Below are positions 11,212 to 58,500 of a stretch of DNA of 64,000 nt, piece after piece. Position 1 is the first letter of the stretch. Each line of letters begins with the position of its first letter. This stretch comes from Liolophura sinensis (Eukaryota; Mollusca; Polyplacophora; Chitonida; Chitonidae). Under the pieces are notes generated by a model. It was not told the DNA's origin. It saw nothing but the letters and a program-made list of their open reading frames with translations, and did no database searches. The stretch is taken from NCBI RefSeq assembly GCF_032854445.1, contig NC_088299.1, positions 10,843,608 to 10,907,607 on the forward strand. The letters run 5' to 3'. The position numbers and the translations under genes were made by a program.

Positions 11212-14079
11212 CTGGAAAGAAAACAGAATATACTAAGTTAATTTTCCTGCGCTATAACGTCTCTTACTTTACTATTTTATAAATTTATAATGCTTAGAAA
11301 AACACGAAGAATCATCTACAAATCTAGGCTTTGTAAAAGACAATCGTCAAGCTATCGTCAATAGACTACACAGACAATGTCCAAAACAACAGTCAAGACA
11401 AATTGAAGAACTAATAAAGTACATTAGAAACTATATATAGGACGGAGTCATGTAGGCCCAAAGATAAGGAATCATCAATTCCCAATGATGACGGAAAGAC
11501 GCGAGGGATGTTCTAAGCTTGTAAACGTAATCCACATTCCAATCGTGGAGCAATGACAGGACGGGTGTTAATCAAAATGCAATGTATCATTTGGGCTTTG
11601 ATTGCTTTTGTTCATATATCCTTCGCGACATGATTTAACGCAGCACATCCATGAATACAAAAATTCCCTCATTAGTTGGAATTAGAAAAGAGAATCGGAA
11701 CTAGTTCCTGGATACACCATCCTTGTTTATATTGACCACAGATTTATGCACTTTAATACCGTTTTCATGAGATTGCTTATAAAATGAGGCGAAAATACAG
11801 CATGTTGAATAATTGACGTCTGATTAACATTACTTTTTTCGTTTAGCAAATTCTGACCCATGCATAATACCAGGGGGTAGATAAGCTGCTATTGTTCAAG
11901 CATTTACATGAATATTAAAACTAGAACTATCTGCAGTTCACAGCTTCTATACAGCCTTCACGCATGGCTTTCGGCTTCTGCCTTATGCAGTACAGATCAG
12001 TATAGGGATATAACCATGATTGTAACAGTCGTGAATAAGTGAAGTGGTGCTGGTATTTTAAGAAACACAACCGTGTAACTGCTGTCAGATTAAATAACGA
12101 CATTTGGATGAGTTCACTGATATGAACCGTGCAGCAATGTGTTATAGCTTTACGTACTGGTTCGTAGCCCAGGGAATTTGTTAATGAACTGAGTAAGGGA
12201 ATAACAACTGTGAATTTGCAGTTTTCTAGAAAAATGACGAAAAGCAAATTCCAAAAAGAAGCAAGAACAATAGCCTTCCAGCTTTTGGCTTGGAAGCTCA
12301 ACAAACCAAACCTGAGGTTAACTGACAAGATGCCGGGTTTCACTGGTTATGCGTGACAATTTTCCAAATGTCAAACTGTCGTTTTCTGTGGTTTTACTCA
12401 CCATGCTATACTCATTAATATTTGATTGAAATCGTCATACGCCTACAAGAAACAGAATCTGGAAAATGTTAAAAAGCGAGATATGTTCATGCATAAGCAA
12501 AACCCTTCGGTAAATTAATATCCAAGTATTTAAGGATAATTAAAAATGTCCAAATTAAAACTACTCTTACTATAACATAAATGACTTGCGAAGAAAACCG
12601 TTTTATAATTTAAAGAAATCTATGTAAAATACACCATCTGGGTGCGGATTTGCGTGTTCTACGGGAGGACACATTTATTTATTCATTGTAAAACTTGGAA
12701 TAAATGGAATAACCTTGACACAAGAGGTTTTGTAACAGTAACCTGATATTTGATGATATTCGTTGCAATCGTCGCATGCACACATGATCTGAGAGATATG
12801 TGCACACTATATTGCTACCCGAGTCAGGACAATTTCCTGTCGGCATGACCATTTGGAGAGTCTGTAGTTTCCTTCCATTCCAATCTTAATAGGCTCAAAT
12901 TAGGAAACGGGACGGCGGGATAGAAAGCCAATAGCCTGAAGACTCCATAAACATAGTGAATGAAGCCTGACATCCTTACTCGTCGCATATAGGCCTAATT
13001 GTCGCCCTTGTTACATGCACAGGTTTCCAACATGCTGTTTTTTACTGGCCGGCGTCCGGTATAAGCGGAGGGCCATTAGATTACCACGTCACAAAGTTGA
13101 AAGCAAATGAACTATTATCTGTTACATCAAAAATATCAAACGCTTATTTCCATTTCTTTACACCTTAATTTGCTCTTTATTTTTATTATTATTTCTAAAT
13201 CACAAAGTTTTATACTACCGTTAACACACAACTGGACCCTGTAAGAGTTTTTAATTGCTATATTTTGTTAAAAATAAATAATATTGGCCCAAAAAGTATT
13301 GCACATTTCTGGGGTGATAACCGGTAGCAAAGTGGATTATTTCATAGTTTGTTATTATTTTGTTAGTGTGGTTATCACTCAATTTTTTGACAGGCATTTA
13401 AATTTTGCACGTCAAAATGGATCTCCACACTTTCATGGGAAAACAAAAATGACCGAATTTCAAACAAATCCGAAGCATAAATAAAGAACATGCAGATGAC
13501 AGTTATATGCTTATCAATTTCGTGACGGATATGATATTTATATGATATTTATGCTAATTAACAGCGCTAAAAGTGGTAAATTTAAGTCAAAATTATGTAA
13601 ATAGTTTCTGCATAGTATTTTAAATCACTTTGTCCAATGCCATACTTTGATCATGTAACCAAAAATACCATCAAATACTAATCCAGTTGTAAGTGGCAAA
13701 ATTACATAACGACAGGATAATTCGCAGTGAAGAATAACAACAGTGAATAGGGATGGCTCCTGAGAAATGTCAGTTTACCTCAGTTAGGATTTTTATACTG
13801 ATTGTAAAACCTTAAATGGTACTTACACTCTTCCCTAACCCGAGCATGATAGCGTAGGTAGAATTATGTAAAGCTACCGCAGTGATATTAAATGCGATTT
13901 AGTGAAGACGTCCAGGATATCTCAAAATGCTGTTTTGTGATCAAATGTAACAGACATTATATGAAAACTTATTTCGGTAATAGATAATAGTGCCCTTGCT
14001 GAACACGAAAACAGTGCAGAGACTAGGCGTCGATGATGTTTAGCCCACTCATGCAGCGCGCGGAGTGACGTATAAACAC
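11212..14079. other. Anonymous AT-rich intergenic DNA
   Basis: No coding region, terminal repeat or SINE was recognised here. A 138-codon open stretch at 11,927-12,343 (minus) has no recognisable domain and no splice or context support. An upstream exon or promoter of the GPCR may lie here unseen. Confidence 0.5.
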
Positions 14080-16134
14080 AAATTCAGCATGAATTCACAT
14101 GTCAACAGTATCCTTAATCAAAGCTCGATTTCGCTGAAAATTAGATACATTTAGATAAAATTAGATATTAATATAGATCATTAAATGGACTTACCGTTAG
14201 TTCCAAAATATAAGTTTTGTGGTAGGTTGTACAGATGTATCACGGAACAACCTCCACCATTCCTCTCCTATCGACTGAGCGAATCACTGGACCTAACTCC
14301 AACAATCTACTATAGTTCAGAATGAGGCTGCTAAATACAAAGTATTGATCTTCACCTTTGGTGCTTTCCCTCTTGGGCCTTACCAATCAGCTATTACCCA
14401 TGAGCGGTGGTGACAAATCTGTTTCTTTCTCAGTCAGTGCTCACCAATGTCCTACAATGGATGTTCACACTTATCTATATATAGAGCGAAAACTCAACCA
14501 GCATGCTATATGCGCATATACCGCACGATAATGGCAACGAACCAATCCATGTGCGCTAAAGCCTTGCACAAGGAAGCAACTGTGGCATTTGCTCCTTGCT
14601 TGTGTCACAAGTCAAAAATCAAAGGCCTCGCTCAATTTATTCCTACACATAAATAATGGTGGATAATTTTCTCTGCTTTTGCATAGGCACCACCCATTCT
14701 CTGTTTGTTTGTTGGCTTTTCTGTTGTTATCAGATTTTGGCCTGGTCCCTTTGTATGGCTTCAATGTGTTTGCATATCAGACGTCGTGGCATCAGATGTA
14801 CCTCATTTTGAGTAATACTAGACAAGTAACGTCAAGTAATTTGCAATAAACATCACGCTTTTTTTACCTAGTTTTGTTTAAGCTATCGTGGAGAATGTGT
14901 AAATTACTACTATTTAAGTATTTAAATGAACAGTTTTAAAAGATAAACCTAACAGGTAAATTGACACAGGTTAAGTGTGATCATTTGCCAATTACCCCAC
15001 TCTCCTCGCTGCTCTGGTTTTGCTCTCTATGGTGTGTCTTTTATTATATACTTTTATTCTTCTCGCCTTTTCCCTCTTGTATTTCGTGATATTATATCCT
15101 TATGCACCATTTTGGTGTCAAGAGCTTTATAGAACTCACACAGAGAATAATCCAGTTTGTTGGTCATGACATGATGATGTCTACATACAACGAACACAAA
15201 AATGGACAAAAAAATTAGCAAAAAATCGGTGTCCATGTATATGTAACGTTGGATAAAAAGATGCTTAAAGAAATTGCATCCTGCATGGAAATGTTTCCTG
15301 GCGTCAGTCTTGTAGGCTGTGCATTGAAGGAAACACTATTCATGCCGGATATGAAGGATACAGTTTTAGTCCAGCTACACGTCACAATAGATCTGGATGC
15401 ATTTAACTTATATGTCAAATAATCCTATAGTTTCGCAATTTCGTGATAAATTCAGTTTGTAGGACGCTAATTTTACCATGTCGAGCATTGCGATGATCCG
15501 TTGATTAAATGGTGGCTTTTACTGTGCTGTGATTTTAACAAGTGGCGTTCACCAGAAATGTAGATGGCATCCCCACTGATTGGTTTCTATTATACAATTA
15601 ATCCACCTTCAAAAGCCAATGTCCGAAATTTGCACTTGTGGTTAGCCATATGTGTGATGAGAACTTAAAGCACCTCCAAGTAACGTTTTCTTTGATTACA
15701 ATAAAACTGCGTGGATATACTATTTGCCTGTGTATTATTGAACACAGTTATGAAGGATTACGATTTGAGGTCATGTCGGCAATTTTTCTGCTATATGAGC
15801 TCTGTGGGATGCATGGGATTAAGTGTGACTGAAAATAATTGCAGTGGCTGATAGATGGATAGGAAAAATAAGTTACAATGGTTAGCTATATCGACGGCAG
15901 CCCCAGTGTAAAATGTGCGGAAATACGGCCGAAAATTACAATCCTTAAAACTTGTGCCGTTGTTGAATTCTGAACACAGAATAAAAGCTGTCCACATCAA
16001 AGGTTTGCCTGAGTTAAATTGCGACGGTCGGGATGCGTAGGCCTGTAGATGTCGCAAATTGCGCTTGGCATAACTTCCTTGACAATACATTTAAGAAAGA
16101 GCTGCAACACCCTCGAAAATGCTCTTGGCTTATA

Positions 16135-16344: not shown

Positions 16345-17118
16345 ATCGACGTTTGGCCTGACATGCCTGTTGTGTGTTGTCACACCGACGTTTGGGGTAA
16401 CATCCCTGTTGTGTGTTGGGGTGACATGTCTGTTGTGTGTTGGAGTGACATGCTTGTTGTGTGTTGTGTGTTAGGGCGCAATGCCAGTTTTGTGTTGGGA
16501 CGACATGCCTCTTGTGTGTTGGGGCGACATGCCTGTTGTGTGTTAGGGTGACATTTTTGTTGTGTGTTGGGGGGACATTTTTGTTGTGTGTTGGAGTGAC
16601 ATGTCTGTTGTGTGATCGGGGGGCATGCCTGTTGTGTGTTGGGGTGACATGCCTGTTGTGTGTAGGGGTGACATGCCTGTTGTGTGTTGGGGTGACATAG
16701 AAGTTGTATGTTGGGACGACATGCCTGTTGTGTGTTGGGTGACATGCCGGTTGTGTGTTGGGGTGACTTGCCTGTTGTGTGTTGGGTGACATGCCGGTTG
16801 TGTGTTGGGGTGACATGTCTGTTGTGTGTTGGGGGGGACATGTCTTTTGCGTGTTGGGGGACATTCCTGTTGTGTGTTGGGACGACATGTCTCTTGTGTG
16901 TTGGGGTGACATGCCAGCTCTGTGTTTGGACGACATGCCTGTTGTGTGTTGGGATGACATGCCAGTTGTGTGTTGGGAGGACATGCCTGTTGTGTGTTGG
17001 CCTGACATGTCTCTTGTGTGTTGGGGTGACATGCCAGCTCTGTGTTTGGACGACATGCCTGTTGTGTGTCTGGGTGACATGCCTGTTGTGTGTTGGGGAA
17101 CATGCCTTTCTGTGTGTG
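16345..17118 (+). repeat. 24-bp minisatellite (copy 1), about 32 units
   Basis: The unit is close to GTGTTGGGGTGACATGCCTG followed by TTGT. Because 24 is a multiple of 3 and the unit lacks stops in five of six frames, long open frames arise on both strands: octapeptide repeats such as HTTGMSPQ, TQQACHPN and THNRHVTP (minus) or DMPVVCWG and GVTCLLCV (plus). The longest is 338 codons at 16,307-17,323 (minus). Codon usage is dictated by the repeat and there is no domain, so I treat it as noncoding. Confidence 0.92.
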
Positions 17119-21327: not shown

Positions 21328-21990
21328 GACGTTTGGAATGACATTTCTGTTGTGTGATGTCACACTGACGTTTGGGACGACATGCCTCTTGTGTGTTGGG
21401 GGCGACATGCCTGTTGTGTGTTGGGGTGACATACCTGTTGTGTGTTAGGGGGGCATGTCTGTTGTGTGTTGGGTGATATGCCTGTTTCTGCTGGGGTGAC
21501 ATGTCTGTTGTCTGTTGGGTGACATGCCAGTTGTGTGTTGGGACAACATACCTGTTGTGTGTTGGGGTGACATGCCTGTTGTGTGTTGGGGTGACATGCC
21601 TGTTGCGTGTTGGGGTGACATGCCTGTTGTGTGTTCGGATGACATGCCTCTTGTGTGTTGGGGTGACATGCCTGTTTGTGATGGGTGACATGCCTGTTGT
21701 GTGTTGGGCTGACATGCCTGTTGTGAGTAGGGGTGACATGCCAGTTGTGTGTTGGGACAACATACCTGTTGTGTGTTGGGGTGACATGCCTGTTGTGTGT
21801 TGGCGGGATGTGGCTGTTGTGTGTTGGGGGGACATGCCAGTTGTGTGTTGGGGTGACATGCCTGTTGTGTGTTGGGGTGACATGCCTGTTGTGTGTTGGG
21901 GGGACATGCCTGTTGTGTGTTGGCGGGATATGTCAGTTGTGTTTTGGGGAGACATGCCAGTTGTCTGTTGGGGAACATGCCTTTTTGTGT
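21328..21990 (+). repeat. 24-bp minisatellite (copy 2), about 27 units
   Basis: Same unit as at 16,345-17,118, with fewer units and different variant order. Long open frames again run through it, 236 codons at 21,287-21,997 (minus) being the longest. Both copies share the same non-repeat C-terminal codons (VY VxRCLHVV), which reflects the duplication rather than selection. Confidence 0.92.
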
Positions 21991-23780
21991 GCTGCATTGC
22001 GTTGTGGTATAAAGCAATTGCGAATGCAAATGCCCTGTGACTGGCTTGCCATATGGAAACATACGCAGTAGGACCTATCTACGGTAAATGAAACAAAAGT
22101 TCGCCCTTGGTTAAGTTGCACGATTTCCCTGATTATCGAAGATTTATTGGTTTTAGATGTGTCGATTGACTTTTAACCATTTAAAAGACAGCGAACCTTT
22201 CACTGCTGACAAAACCTGGCGTTGCCTATGACCTGGTATAATACGTTTGTGAACCATTACATGTTGTTATAAAGGCCGGGCATTGATAATTAGTATTTTA
22301 AAACTGAATTTATCCTTACACCTTCGTTGGGTCGGCAACGGTGATATTTTACATGGCCGTTTTGATTCTCATACAAAGAATCCCGGAGAGGCGTCAAGTC
22401 ATGTCCTTCAAAGGTTCGCTCAGAAAGGATTATACAGTGAAAGAGGCGCTATATTTTTTTTATCTGTTTTCATAGAATTCTTTGATTACCATGATCAAAC
22501 AATTACTTTTATTAATTTGTGGGCTACAATTTTAAAAACATCTGAATTTAAATATTTAATGACTTGAAAGCTCCCATGGCCAAAAAGCGCGCGGGAAATC
22601 GCTCTAACATGGCCATCAAAACAACACAACCTGTGCAATATCTCGTTCTGAAAAGCTGTACAGAGAGATAGTAAATGAGGTGATGAGCTGTCAAGCAGTG
22701 TCGTGACCGGGTAAATCAGCACCACTAGAAATATGTCACTGGCTGCAGCTGCGATTTTTGTATATGACGCCTTTCATTTTTTTTCGTTCTGAGGAATACG
22801 CCCCAGGTGTTTGAGTCAGACGTGTACATGTACCCACGAATCAAAAATGATTCGCTACATGTGAACGACTTTTCCCGCCAACTTTGTACCTGACATTCTT
22901 GGTTTGCCTTTTTTCTTCTTTCCAGGTTTCAACAATTGCAATTTTCAGACAAACTACAGTTGCATACTCCTCACAGTATCTAGGTAATACAAGGTTAGGC
23001 GCCAGTGATAGGGGTGTAATCAGGTGCTAACGTCCTCCTCCCTATTTTTAGGGTGGAAGATACCAACAAATACATAAATAAAAGACAAAGAAGAGAAAAA
23101 AAGGAAAAGAGAGTGCTGTTACACCAGAAGTCGCCAAAATACGCCTTTCATCTTATATGAAAGGCCGTAAGCTCACAGAACCCTTGAAATCTCGCCTATT
23201 GACTGGCATAGTAACTCAACTACTACAACCAACAATCGCTATGAATATGATTGATTAAGACAAATAAAGAAAGAACAAATAAAATATGTAGTTTACCCCG
23301 GCTTCCTGTCACAATTTTAGTTACCAAAAATCACCTCAAACGCGTAACTTTGTATCTAAAAATAGCTAAATTAAGATTCTGGACTTTGCATCCCTGGACC
23401 GTCGCCCTTGTTTTGGCTGTGAGAGTAATTCTGAGAGTGGCTTTCGTCCCATCCCAAAAATGTTCTGCTGCCAGCCCCCTAAACATTTGATTATCTGATT
23501 AGCTAGCATTCCTGCTGACGTCTCTGTTTTCTTCGACCGCAAATTTCAGAGTCCTTTTTACTCCTCACAGTTAGGTTGCCGTCCACACTATTGAAGAATG
23601 CAATTCCATGTCATTTGTGCTGTGTGACATTTTAAATCAGCGTTGCTGGCGAGGCTGTAGTCGGAAGATCCGCAAACCTAGACAGTCGTATAGATGAGTT
23701 TCAGGCAATGTCAAAGTTAATTTGTGCCCTGGGACAAATTGATGGCCTAAAACATTACGAACCCTAAAATAACAAAAAAT

Positions 23781-52500: not shown

Positions 52501-55500
52501 AATCCAAAAATGCAAGATAAAACGACTTTTGTGCAGAAGTGATATCCTGACTCTCGTGAAATTATCAGATGCAAACCATGAGTTTTGTAGCGTTTTTAAC
52601 CTGACTGCACCAATCATTAAAGGTGCGCAGAGTTTCTAATAGCTGCAGTCTGTGTTAGCTGCAAGACATTCATATAAATGTATTTTCATGGTAGGTCTCT
52701 TTGTGCAGCAAATATCTGTACCTACGAAAGATAACTTGTTGGAAAAGTAACACGATGTAATATTGTTGCAGTTAAATACATGTAATTATTGTGCTTAAGG
52801 AATAAACACTCACTCTGTGAAATTAACTGTGAGAAATATTCCTTGTAATAGGGTAAATTGTTGAACGTATTTTCACTCTCTTTTGACAGACTCTGACATT
52901 CGTTACTGTGTCCTGGCCTCGTTAGACGAACGCTTTGACCCTCACCTGGCCCAGGCTGAGAACCTTAGTGCTCTATTTGTTGCCCTCAACGATGAGGTGT
53001 TTGAAATACGGGAACTCGCTATTTGTATTATTGGCCGCCTAAGCTGTATGAACCCAGCTTATGTGATGCCGTCACTGAGGAAGACGCTGATTCAGGTACG
53101 TAAGTGTTCTGTGATGGTATCTACCTGTCTCCCAGTATTGACAAGATAAGCTTTATGAGGCCAGATTAGCTGTAGGAACAGAGTTTAACTGTATGAACCC
53201 AGCTTCTGTGATGCCATGACTGTGGAAGACACTGATTCAGGTATGTCTATTTTATGGGGTGTCATGAACCTGCTTTTCAATATTGATGGGTAAACTCTAT
53301 GAATCCAGCGTAGCTGTAGGAAAACGGCTGGCTTAACCGTACAAATCCAGCTTATGAGCCCAGCTTAGCTCCTGGCTTCACTGTACAAATCCAGCTTAGC
53401 TGTATGAACCCAGCATAGCTGTGTGAACCTAGCTTAGCTGTATGAGCCCAGCTTAGCTGCTGGCTTAACTGTACAAATCCAGCTTAGCTGTAAGAACCCA
53501 GCTTAGCCGTGTGGACCTAGCTTAGCTGTATGAGCTCACCTTAGTTGCTGGCTTAACTGTACAAATCCAGCTTAGCTGTATGAACCCAGCTTAGCTGTGT
53601 GAACCCAGCCTAGCTGTAGGAAGCCGGTTTACCTGTACATATCCAGCTTATGTGAGACATTCACTGAGGAGGACACTGATTCAGGTATGCATGTGTTCTG
53701 TGATGTTATCTACCTGTCTTTTGTTATTGACAGGATAAGCTTTATGAAGTCATATTAACCATTGGATCCCAGCATAGCTGTACAACCCAGGTTATGTAAT
53801 ACTGAGTCTCTACCTGTGTGGGGGCCTCAGTGGCTCAGTTGGTTAGCGCGCTAGCGCAGCGTAGACCCAGGAGTCTCTCACCAATGCGGTCGCTGTGAGT
53901 TCAAGTCCAGCTCATGCTGGCTTCCTCTCCGGCCGTATGTGGAAAGGTCTGACAGCAACCTGCGGATGGTCGTGGGTTTTCCCCAGGCTCTGCCTGGTTT
54001 CCTCCCACCATAATGCTGGCCGCCGTCGTATAAGTGAAATATTATTGAGTACAGCCTAAAACACGAATCAAATAAATAAATAAATCTACCTGCATGAACC
54101 AGGATTCACTGGATAGTTTGCATGAACTCATTTGTTGGGGATTACTTAATACTTACTCCATCATTACAGGAGACTCGCTACTCTTGATCTGCTCGTGAAA
54201 AAAAGTGTCATATGTGGTGTGGGAATGTTCATTACTGACTTGTCCAAGGTTTGTGGTTTGCTCCAGGCATCCTGGTTTCCTCCACTCATGGAACTGACTC
54301 TCTTCATTTAAGAGAAATATTCTTCAGTATGAAGTCAGAATCTGTTAAATCAGTCCATTAATAAAGAATTATATATTGAATAAGGACTGACTGGATACAT
54401 GTAGTTATTGTTTTTGATTGTTGATGCATTATTCATCTGTAGATCATCTGTCGAGTAACTCAATCTGAATCAGTGAAGAAGTACACTTTGAGTAATTTTA
54501 AATAATGACAGACTGGAGACTCATTGTTTTGGGTATTCATGCATTGTTCATCTGCAGGTCATCTGTCAAGTAACTCAATGTGAATCAGTGAAGAAGTACA
54601 CTTCGAGTAATTTTAAATAATGACAGACTGCAGAGTTATTGTTTTGGGTATTGATGCATTGTTCATCTGTAGATCATCTGTCAAGTAACTCAATGTGAAT
54701 CATTGAAGAAGTACACTTAGGGTAAATTTAAATAATGACAGACTGCAGAGTCATTGTTTTGGGTATTGATGCATTGTTCATCTGTAGGTCATCTGTCAAG
54801 TAACTCAATGTGAATCATTGAAGAAGTACACTTAGGGTAAATTTAAATAATGACAGACTGCAGAGTCATTGTTTTGGGTATTGATGCATTGTTCATCTGT
54901 AGGTCATCTGTCAAGTAACTCAATGTGAATCATTGAAGAAGTACACTTAGGGTAAATTTAAATAATGACAGACTGCAGAGTCATTGTTTTGGGTATTCAT
55001 GCATTGTTCATCTGTAGGTCATCTGTCAAGTAACTCAATGTGAATCATTGAAGAAGTACACTTAGAGTAATTTTAAATAAGGACAGACTGCAGAGTCATT
55101 GTTTTGGGTATTGATGCATTGTTCATCTGTAGGTCATCTGTCAAGTAACTCAATGTGAATCAGTGAAGAAGTACACTTAGAGTAATTTTAAATAATGAAA
55201 GACTGCAGAGTTATTGTTTTGGGTATTGATGCATTGTTCATCTGTAGATCATCTGTCAAGTAACTCAATCTGAATCAGTGAAGAAGTACACTTAGGGTAA
55301 ATTTAAATAATGACAGACTGCAGAGTCATTGTTTTGGGTATTGATGCATTGTTCATCTGTAGGTCATCTGTCAAGTAACTCAATGTGAATCATTGAAGAA
55401 GTACACTTAGGGTAAATTTAAATAATGACAGACTGCAGAGTCATTGTTTTGGGTATTGATGCATTGTTCATCTGTAGGTCATCTGTCAAGTAACTCAATG

Positions 55501-58500
55501 TGAATCATTGAAGAAGTACACTTAGGGTAAATTTAAATAATGACAGACTGCAGAGTCATTGTTTTGGGTATTGATGCATTGTTCATTTGTAGGTCATCTG
55601 TCAAGTAACTCAATCTGAATCATTGAAGAAGTACACTTAGGGTAAATTTAAATAAGGACAGACTGCAGAGTCATTGTTTTGGGTATTGATGCATTGTTCA
55701 TCTGTAGGTCATCTGTCAAGTAACTCAATGTGAATCATTGAAGAAGTACACTTAGGGTAAATTTAAATAATGACAGACTGCAGAGTCATTGTTTTGGGTA
55801 TTGATGCATTGTTCATCTGTAGGTCATCTGTCAAGTAACTCAATGTGAATCATTGAAGAAGTACACTTAGGGTAAATTTAAATAATGACAGACTGCAGAG
55901 TCATTGTTTTGGGTATTGATGCATTGTTCATCTGTAGGTCATCTGTCAAGTAACTCAATGTGAATCATTGAAGAAGTACACTTAGGGTAAATTTAAATAA
56001 TGACAGACTGCAGAGTCATTGTTTTGGGTATTGATGCATTGTTCATCTGTAGGTCATCTGTCAAATAACTCAATGTGAATCATTGAAGAAGTACACTTAG
56101 GGTAAATTTAAATAATGACAGACTGCAGAGTCATTGTTTTGGGTATTGATGCATTGTTCATCTGTAGGTCATCTGTCAAGTAACTCAATGTGAATCATTG
56201 AAGAAGTACACTTAGGGTAAATTTAAATAATGACAGACTGCAGAGTCATTGTTTTGGGTATTCATGCATTGTTCGTCTGTAGGTCATCTGTCAAGTAACT
56301 CAATGTGAATCATTGAAGAAGTACACTTAGGGTAAATTTAAATAATGACAGACTGCAGAGTCATTGTTTTGGGTATTGATGCATTGTTCATCTGTAGATC
56401 ATCTGTCAAGTAACTCAATGTGAATCATTGAAGAAGTACACTTAGGGTAAATTTAAATAATGACAGACTGCAGAGTCATTGTTTTGGGTATTGATGCATT
56501 GTTCATCTGTAGGTCTTCTGTCAAGTAACTCAATCTGAATCAGTGAAGAAGTGCACTTAGAGTAATTTTAAATAATGACAGACTGGAGACTCATTGTTTT
56601 GGGTATTCATGCATTGTTCATCTGTAGGTCATCAGTCAAGTAACTCAATCTGAATCAGTGAAGAAGTACACTTAGAGTAATTTTAAATAATAACAGACTA
56701 CAGAGTCATTGTTCTGGGTATTCATGCATTGTTCATCTGTAGGTCATCTGTCAAGTAACTCAATGTGAATCAGTGAAGAAGTACACTTAGAGTAATTTTA
56801 AATAATGACAGACTGCAGAGTCATTGTTTTGGGTATTGATGCATTGTTCATCTGTAGGTCATCTGTCAAGTAACTCAATGTGAATCATTGAAGAAGTACA
56901 CTTAGGGTAAATTTAAATTATGACAGACTGCAGAGTCATTGTTTTGGGTATTCATGCATTGTTCATCTGTAGATCATCTGTCAAGTAACTCAATGTGAAT
57001 CATTGAAGAAGTACACTTAGGGTAAATTTAAATAATGACAGACTGCAGAGTCATTGTTTTGGGTATTGATGCATTGTTCATTTGTAGGTCTTCTGTCAAG
57101 TAACTCAATCTGAATCAGTGAAGAAGTGCACTTAGAGTAATTTTAAATAATGACAGACTGGAGACTCATTGTTTTGGGTATTGATGCATTGTTCATCTGT
57201 AGGTCATCTGTCAAGTAACTCAATCTGAATCAGTGAAGAAGTGCACTTAGAGTAATTTTAAATAATAACAGACTACAGAGTCATTGTTCTGGGTATTCAT
57301 GCATTGTTCATCTGTAGGTCATCTGTCAAGTAACTCAATGTGAATCATTGAAGAAGTACACTTAGGGTAAATTTAAATAATGACAGACTGTAGAGTCATT
57401 GTTTTGGGTATTCATGCATTGTTCATTTGTAGGTCTTCTGTCAAGTAACTCAATCTGAATCAGTGAAGAAGTGCACTTTGAGTAATTTTAAATAATGACA
57501 GACTGCAGACTCATTGTTTTGGGTATTCATGCATTGTTCATCTGTAGGTCATCTGTCAAGTAACTCAATCTGAATCAGTGAAGAAGTACACTTACAGTAA
57601 TTTTAAATAATGACAGACTGGAGACTCATTGTTTTGGGTATTCATGCATTGTTCATCTGTAGGTCATCTGTCAAATAACTCAGTTTGAATCACTGAAAAA
57701 GTTCACTATTTAAAAGAGTAATTTTAAATAATGACAGCCTGGAGAGCCATTGTTTTTGAACTGTTTATTTGTGGTTCATCTAAAGATCTTGACAGAATTG
57801 GAGCACAGTGGAGTGGGTCGTAACAAGGAACAGGCAGCCCGCCTGCTGGGCCACCTGGTGTCTAATGCTGCGCGCCTGATACGGCCATACATGGAACCTA
57901 TCCTAAAGGTCAGCATATTCAAACAGCTCCAGATGGTTCACACTCCGTACCACATTGACTTATCGGGGAGAGATAACCTTCTACAAATGCTTCACCGTGT
58001 ACAATTTGACCAAAAATTATATAATATTCTAGTTTGATGCATTGATTATTAATTAATCGTACTTTTAACCAAAACTTAAGGCTGAGATTTTTATTTTTAA
58101 TAATGTTAATACATTGCTTAAGATCTAGGAACTTTTTACATATTTGACTTGTGAAAGAACCTGTGATTTTACATGTATGTGTATGATGTAATCTTGTCGA
58201 GAAGTTAAAAACCACTTCATCGGTGTACTGTACCTTGTATTTGAACAGGTGTTGATCCCTAAACTGAAGGAGCCAGACTCAAACCCAGCTGTGACTATCT
58301 GTGTTCTGGCTGCCATAGGAGAACTAGCCCAGGTATTTGTGGTGTACCGTTGGTGAATATAGGTTGATGTTGTACAAGTAGCCTAACTCTTCCAGTTTTT
58401 AGGACAGGTATTGGTTGTGCTGAAAGTGAAGAATTACATTTCTCTCCAAATTTTATGAAAAGTAAAGATTGAATATGTTGTTCATTAGCTGGACTAATCA

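What the first reader, a model, noticed from the sequence alone, without database searches (positions are those of the whole stretch)
54404..57785. A 29-unit 115-bp satellite whose terminal unit is the real splice acceptor of mTOR exon 15
The last diverged unit ends TTCATCTAAAG|ATC, the functional acceptor; every other unit carries TTCATCTGTAG|(G/A)TC at the same place. The simplest reading is that a segment ending at the 3' splice site was amplified upstream, so about 29 AG decoys now precede one true acceptor. The terminal copy is more diverged than the central ones, as expected if the centre is homogenised and the splice site is under selection.
Basis: partly seen in the sequence, partly recalled or inferred. 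Interest (0 to 1): 0.75.

Follow-up and report, generated by a model that had tools for sequence, protein, structure and literature searches.

The report
Intron repeats copied from splice sites
In this probable mollusc's mTOR gene, one intron carries about 30 tandem copies of the stretch around its real acceptor and two extra copies of its donor; similar copying turns up in about one in six introns sampled, so it looks like an ordinary side-effect of a genome prone to tandem duplication, though a useful natural test of how cells choose splice sites.

Summary
The array is real: 115 bp x 29, 95% alike, found at this locus only. The last 123 bp before mTOR exon 15 are homologous to the unit (score 115; best of 1,409 random pieces 28), and all 29 upstream copies keep AG. 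Two corrections: the pairing of the true AG with the decoy AG is ambiguous (two registers, 11 nt apart), and the left edge is diverged too, so selection on the splice site is not needed to explain the diverged last copy. Intron 14 is not alone: 14 of 90 introns tested (43 in mTOR, 47 in dynein, adaptin and myosin genes) hold a copy of the 80 nt around one of their own splice sites; in 11 of the 14 a copy keeps GT or AG. Splice sites are no hotspot (12/106 windows against 39/212 internal ones, P=0.14). This resembles the 'mirage' minisatellites of amphioxus, but the genome has an eight-domain haemocyanin cluster of molluscan type. Best reading: neutral tandem duplication blind to splice sites, the exon-proximal site being the one used. 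No RNA was available.

The parts
52890..53095 (+). mTOR exon upstream of the intron ('exon 14', counting from the first exon found in the window); true donor after 53095 (CAG|GTACGT)
   Evidence: tblastn with recalled human MTOR; splice sites
53186..53246 (+). donor copy 1: exon 3' end plus donor copied into the intron; decoy donor after 53240 (CAG|GTATGT)
   Evidence: local score 87, control maximum 29 in 1,470; rank 2 of 406 GTs, 10.7 bits against 10.9 for the true donor
53349..53647 (+). minisatellite of 19-bp and 88-bp units; the unit CTGTATGAACCCAGCTTAG matches exon sequence 53044-53062 at 18 of 19 bases
   Evidence: TRF, motif list
53643..53747 (+). donor copy 2: exon 3' end, donor and about 60 nt of intron; decoy donor after 53684 (CAG|GTATGC)
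   Evidence: local score 130, control maximum 29 in 1,470; rank 3 of 406 GTs, 8.7 bits
54376..54442 (+). left, diverged edge copy of the 115-bp array (weaker similarity back to about 54340), ending in the first decoy AG
   Evidence: nhmmer E 3.2e-05 with the array core masked; weaker extension by local alignment
54443..57662 (+). 28 full 115-bp units, each ending in TTCATCTGTAG or within one base of it; decoy acceptors at 54442 + 115n (29 in all)
57663..57785 (+). terminal 123-bp diverged copy; contains the true acceptor TTCATCTAAAG|ATC at 57785
   Evidence: score 115 against control maximum 28; nhmmer E 2.2e-20 with core masked
57786..57908 (+). mTOR exon 15, ILTELEHSG...EPILK
   Evidence: phmmer to mTOR chains of the PDB, E 1.4e-19

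Best explanation
Local tandem duplication, acting along introns without regard to splice sites, has repeatedly copied a splice site or its flank into the adjoining intron; slippage or unequal exchange then lengthened some of these into arrays and homogenised their centres. In mTOR intron 14 it happened at both ends: the end of exon 14 with its donor was copied at least twice, and the last ~115 bp of the intron, with a branch-point-like A at -19, pyrimidine-rich stretch and AG, was amplified to about 30 copies. Splicing survives because only the outermost, exon-proximal sites adjoin the complete exons, so exon definition picks them and the decoys stay intronic. Shown: array, homologies, copies in other introns, no clear splice-site hotspot. 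Inferred: the duplication mechanism, neutrality, and which sites are used.
For: Terminal copy homologous to the unit. Donor copies with exon sequence, scores 87 and 130 against control maximum 29. Array found only at this locus and the exon 15 peptide once in the genome. In mTOR, copies at 8 of 86 splice-site windows of 43 introns (both of intron 14, its acceptor with only 28 points, and one site in each of 6 others). In other genes 7 of 54 resolved introns score 30 or more. Null: 1 of 1,398 mismatched window-intron pairs reaches 30. No hotspot: splice windows 12/106, one-sided internal windows 39/212, Fisher P=0.14; array placement 6 of 20 near a splice site, 3.2 expected, P=0.06. 59 of 67 boundary-spanning copies keep GT or AG (this count holds only one of the 29 decoys of intron 14). 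Edge divergence with homogenised centre.
Against: No RNA, no second haplotype and no related species, so use of the sites and age of the array are unknown. The 115-bp unit carries no recognisable exon 15 sequence (exon start scores 14, below the control mean of 16), so copying across that boundary is not shown. In 3 of the 14 positive introns no copy holds an intact site: two copy only the flank and in the third the AG is lost (k>l, w>y, L021). The register at the true AG is ambiguous. A modest excess near splice sites (P=0.06) or a modest deficit (odds ratio 0.57) cannot be excluded.
Confidence: 0.8

Rival explanations
1. The array is a functional splicing regulator: decoy acceptors, or 49-nt pseudo-exons between a decoy AG and the unit's AGG|GTAAAT, are used in some tissues and send mTOR mRNA to decay.
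For: All 29 decoys keep AG; in the two decoys looked at, a y-T-n-A-y context stands at -19 as at the true site. The true acceptor is weak: 11th percentile of 89 real acceptors; 2 of 29 decoys score higher and 22 of 29 score 5.1-5.7 against 6.2. AGGGTAAAT scores 7.4, near the lower quartile of real donors. Every decoy acceptor leads to an in-frame stop before exon 15 (0 of 29 open).
Against: Intact decoys are expected from homogenisation alone; similar copies occur in unrelated genes; 27 of 29 decoys score below the true site with the larger matrix.
Confidence: 0.08
2. A tandem series of dual-specific AG|GT sites removes the intron stepwise or stochastically, like the polyubiquitin array.
For: 24 of 29 decoys read AG|GT; an AGGT array with stochastic splicing is described for UBC (PMC10809524, abstract seen).
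Against: As a donor TAGGTCATC scores 2.5, below the 5th percentile (4.9) of real donors.
Confidence: 0.03
3. Splice sites are hotspots of array birth, for instance through R-loops or stalled forks at exon-intron borders.
For: 6 of 20 arrays lie within 15 nt of a splice site, 3.2 expected, P=0.061; without intron 14, 6 of 18, P=0.054.
Against: Without the introns that have gaps or missing exons, 4 of 13, 2.9 expected, P=0.29; splice windows are copied no more often than internal ones (12/106 against 39/212; 7/83 donors and 7/83 acceptors against 49/248 internal windows searched on both sides).
Confidence: 0.08
4. The array ends near the exon by chance: an unrelated intron satellite that grew until it met the exon, the true acceptor not being part of the unit.
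For: In the register favoured by central units, homology stops at 57781, 4 nt before the end of the true AG; no exon 15 sequence in the unit.
Against: Homology of the 123-bp terminal copy is far beyond chance and reaches to within 4 nt of the acceptor in either register; the left-edge copy shares ATTGTTTTTG and AGATC with it.
Confidence: 0.1

Closest known systems
[quoted passage not shown] passages seen)
   Same: Exon end plus splice site copied tandemly into the intron at donor or acceptor; AG/GT often kept; concerted evolution inside the cluster with the cluster edges excluded.
   Different: This genome has an eight-domain haemocyanin cluster of molluscan type, so it is taken not to be a cephalochordate. 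Both ends of one intron are affected; the acceptor array is longer (about 30 units; the haplotypes of BflGb6 had 6 and 3) and shows no exon sequence in its unit. Undisturbed splicing is reported there and untested here.
Human CBS 31-bp VNTR across the end of an exon, c.1444_1467+7(16_21) (PMC2630376, passages seen)
   Same: Tandem array made of an exon end and its donor.
   Different: Single human locus, donor only, 31-bp unit, length polymorphism known.
[quoted passage not shown]
   Same: A duplicated junction in which the machinery strongly favours the more distal site, as inferred here. The passage says 'splice donor', but the work it cites is titled on 3' splice site selection.
   Different: One extra copy, not an array.
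Polyubiquitin UBC array of dual-specific AGGT sites (PMC10809524, abstract seen)
   Same: Tandem AG|GT motifs at unit boundaries.
   Different: Coding repeats, sites reported as used; here the motif is a poor donor.

Membership tests
[quoted passage not shown]
   Both copies hold exon sequence; the last 40 nt of the exon alone score 55
mirage minisatellite (amphioxus type) | The same, for the 115-bp acceptor array | tested here: inconclusive
   Intron side of the boundary is in the array; exon 15 start scores 14, chance level. The array abuts the boundary, so it is called mirage-like and not filed as a strict mirage
mirage minisatellite (amphioxus type) | Copies carry AG/GT signals | tested here: met
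   29 of 29 decoy AGs; 2 of 2 decoy GTs
mirage minisatellite (amphioxus type) | Concerted evolution inside the cluster, edges excluded | tested here: met
   Differences from consensus: first two units 11 and 5, units 3-18 0-5, last ten 2-9; both outermost copies diverged
mirage minisatellite (amphioxus type) | Regular splicing is not disturbed | not testable with these tools
   no RNA data
mirage minisatellite (amphioxus type) | Length instability between haplotypes or somatic cells | not testable with these tools
   one assembly only; the array is found once
mirage minisatellite (amphioxus type) | Host is a cephalochordate (the hosts named in the passages seen) | tested here: not met
   8 haemocyanin beta-sandwich matches in one 11-kb cluster; that PF14830 is molluscan is recalled. 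The taxon is not a mechanistic criterion
dual-specific splice site array (UBC type) | Each AGGT works as donor and acceptor | tested here: inconclusive
   24 of 29 are AGGT but the donor score of 2.5 is below the 5th percentile of real donors; use not testable

The most novel reading that the evidence does not exclude
In this mollusc, tandem duplication that captures splice sites is a main route of intron growth: about half of the long introns carry copies of the flank of their own donor or acceptor, many of them near full strength. The spliceosome must therefore choose the exon-proximal site among many lookalikes throughout the genome, and some of these arrays (mTOR intron 14, with 3 donors and 30 acceptors) are occasionally used, giving non-productive transcripts that tune expression.
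Probability: 0.25. Interest if true: 0.65.

Novelty: new member of a known kind. Interest (0 to 1): 0.45.

Why it matters
If the sampled rate holds, one genome offers a large natural set of introns in which the true splice site competes with copies that match it over tens of bases. Local motif strength alone cannot explain the choice there, so the set would test exon definition, position and exonic enhancers directly, and would supply candidates for intron gain by mirage duplication, as proposed for amphioxus globins (PMC3087553, passages seen).

Tried and rejected
Exon 15 as part of the 115-bp unit: exon start scores 14 against the unit, chance level, not supported. Hotspot reading: permutation and window tests give no clear support. 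A 12-nt microexon (AG|VICQ and variants|GTAACT, the GTAACT present at 27 of 29 sites): in frame but without any evidence of use. Decoy donors stronger than the true donor: seen with a matrix from 19 donors of this window (10.4 and 9.6 against 7.9) but not with one from 89 introns (10.7 and 8.7 against 10.9), so dropped; likewise the true acceptor moved from rank 9 of 337 to rank 7 of 338 AGs. One search also printed three donor scores one base out of register; they were not used. A second locus for the array: none found (that search gives lower bounds). In one search, 22 of the 76 neighbouring exon pairs that passed my contiguity filter could not be resolved and were left out, pairs that failed the filter were skipped uncounted, and the 54 resolved introns come from 22 of the 28 stretches fetched; this may bias the rate. 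In one search, 7 of the 54 were left out for poor splice scores or a poor length fit. mTOR intron 12 (no acceptor assigned) was not tested. Literature: ten searches; no row that I was shown is a mollusc case, but four lists were cut (20 of 48 papers, 12 of 33, 10 of 1,481, 12 of 30), the library lacks most subscription journals, and a look-up by a DOI that I recalled for the original Adh3 paper found nothing held.
Full report
THE OBSERVATION. The array is real. Tandem Repeats Finder gives 54421-57756, period 115, 29.0 copies, 95% matches. The DNA search of the 609-Mb genome found this locus only (12 matches listed, all inside the array; counts there are lower bounds). The gene is mTOR: 57786-57908 aligns over all 41 residues to mTOR chains of the PDB, the peptide is found once in the genome, and 20 exons of the window were placed with a recalled human sequence. 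Exon 14 ends at 53095 and exon 15 begins at 57786; the intron is 4,690 bp.

IS THE TERMINAL COPY HOMOLOGOUS? Yes. Its local score against the doubled consensus is 115; 1,409 random window pieces of the same length reach at most 28 (1,500 drawn, those touching the array dropped). Its last 30 bases taken alone are less telling: score 20, reached by 1.4% of 4,714 random pieces. With the array core masked, a profile of the units finds 57663-57781 at E 2.2e-20 and 54376-54442 at E 3.2e-05, and nothing else in the window below E 2.7. So both outer copies are diverged, and divergence of the last one needs no special selection. Six of 28 units are identical to the consensus; the first two differ from it at 11 and 5 positions, units 3-18 at 0-5, the last ten at 2-9.

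THE REGISTER IS AMBIGUOUS. Against the central consensus, five of six scoring schemes pair the decoy AG with 57774, which reads GTGG, and put the true AG 11 nt further on; against the left-edge copy all six pair it with 57785; against the first full unit three schemes give 57785, one 57774 and two neither. Summed over alignments, the central consensus favours 57774 by 3.6 to 7.1 bits, the first full unit by 0.5 to 3.5, and the left edge ranges from 1 bit in favour of 57785 to 2.5 bits in favour of 57774; the 57774 register was allowed to choose its best end, which helps it. In either case homology reaches within 4 nt of the acceptor.

In the same intron the end of exon 14 with its donor is copied inward twice, 53186-53246 (score 87) and 53643-53747 (score 130); controls reach 29 in 1,470 pieces. 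Between them lies a minisatellite (53349-53647) whose 19-bp unit CTGTATGAACCCAGCTTAG matches exon sequence at 53044 at 18 of 19 bases. The exon sequence in the copies shows the direction: exon to intron.

HOW GOOD ARE THE DECOYS? With a matrix from 89 other introns the true donor scores 10.9 and the two copies 10.7 and 8.7, ranks 1 to 3 of 406 GTs in the intron. The true acceptor scores 6.2, at the 11th percentile of 89 real acceptors and rank 7 of 338 AGs; 2 of 29 decoys score more and 22 of 29 score 5.1-5.7. An earlier matrix from this window alone put both decoy donors above the true one; that ranking did not hold. All 29 decoys keep AG, 24 as AG|GT. In the true site and in the two decoys looked at, an A in a y-T-n-A-y context stands at -19. 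Use of any decoy acceptor would meet a stop before exon 15 (29 of 29), and use of either decoy donor would add a length not divisible by three and meet a stop 17 codons past the true exon end.

IS INTRON 14 SPECIAL? No. I fetched the rest of the gene and placed its exons. Of 86 splice-site windows in 43 introns, 8 have a copy in the adjoining intron: intron 14 donor (100) and acceptor (28, below my usual threshold of 30, but 70 with a window reaching 80 nt into the intron), and one site in each of six other introns (143, 104, 93, 50, 40, 36). The other 78 score 27 or less; of these the two highest are 27 (own control maximum 28) and 24 (own control maximum 23). Examples: three further matches to the start of the exon RDLFNAAFVSCW with its acceptor, and a 40-bp array whose unit holds ACAG|GCAGTAA, the start of the next exon. 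Two of the six introns contain an assembly gap or a missed exon. For other genes I took exon positions from family searches for myosin, adaptin and dynein and fetched 28 stretches (17 dynein, 4 adaptin, 7 myosin). Of 76 neighbouring exon pairs that passed a contiguity filter, 54 introns were resolved, from 22 of the 28 stretches; 7 of 54 score 30 or more. Leaving out 7 introns with poor splice scores or a poor length fit gives 43 mTOR plus 47 other introns, 90 in all: 14 of 90 have an end copied (7 of 43 and 7 of 47), 10 of 21 among introns of 900 bp or more and 4 of 69 among shorter ones. Mismatched pairs of flank and intron reach 30 in 1 of 1,398 trials. A limit: the test sees the 80 nt around a site. 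In 11 of the 14 introns at least one copy holds an intact GT or AG; in two (k>l, w>y) the copies hold only the flank, and in one (L021) three copies span the boundary and none keeps AG.

HOTSPOT OR BLIND PROCESS? In introns of 450 bp or more, splice windows have a copy in 12 of 106 cases and intron-internal windows, searched on one side only, in 39 of 212 (Fisher P=0.14; internal windows overlap and are not independent). With internal windows searched on both sides, in introns of 300 bp or more, the counts are 7/83 donors, 7/83 acceptors and 49/248 internal windows. Arrays lie within 15 nt of a splice site in 6 of 20 cases, 3.2 expected under random placement in the same introns (P=0.061); without intron 14, whose two arrays miss this 15-nt mark, 6 of 18 (P=0.054); without doubtful introns as well, 4 of 13 (P=0.29). 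Arrays fill 10,862 of 48,692 bp of the gene span. The data fit duplication that takes no notice of splice sites. Of 67 copies that span a boundary, 59 keep GT or AG (only one of the 29 decoys of intron 14 is in this count), so there is no sign that decoys are quickly disabled.

MECHANISM. Tandem duplication followed by slippage or unequal exchange makes and homogenises the arrays (inferred). The complete exon adjoins only the outermost site, and recognition of the exon as a unit would keep that site in use (inferred). In the human CBS gene a duplicated intron 7/exon 8 junction is spliced at the more distal site (PMC2630376, passages), and in amphioxus the Adh3 data and globin RT-PCR are said to suggest that such repeats do not disturb splicing (PMC3087553, passages).

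COMPARISON. [quoted passage not shown] The donor side here meets the definition. The 115-bp acceptor array abuts the boundary but its unit shows no exon sequence, so it is mirage-like only. None of the rows shown by my ten literature searches is a mollusc case, but several lists were cut and the library is partial.

VERDICT. The frequency, more than the single array, is what deserves a second look.

Noticed in passing
L001-L005 (G000:C5:10907500-10957099), joined coordinates 13938-14621: A 58-bp array that begins inside an mTOR exon end and repeats its donor runs up to a 200-N gap; about 380 residues of mTOR were not detected between the exons on either side, so the assembly may break in the array.
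   Followed up: partly
window, about 53820-54085: A tRNA-like SINE appears to sit inside intron 14 with CTACCTG on both sides, possibly a target-site duplication, within sequence that itself resembles a further donor-side copy (read from the sequence). Similar stretches seem to occur elsewhere in the window; the family was not tested.
   Followed up: no
window 16392-17117 and 21372-21991: Two arrays about 5 kb apart share the same 24-bp consensus unit TTGGGGTGACATGCCTGTTGTGTG.
   Followed up: no
L025 (G000:C7:4455400-4465350), intron of an adaptin-family gene: 22 matches to an acceptor with flank and exon start over 1.2 kb before the exon, 21 with AG kept; a stronger case than the mTOR acceptor array because exon sequence is copied too.
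   Followed up: partly
G000:C99: Seven COX1 matches spaced about 15.5 kb apart on one contig: apparently a tandem multimer of the mitochondrial genome, probably an assembly product.
   Followed up: no
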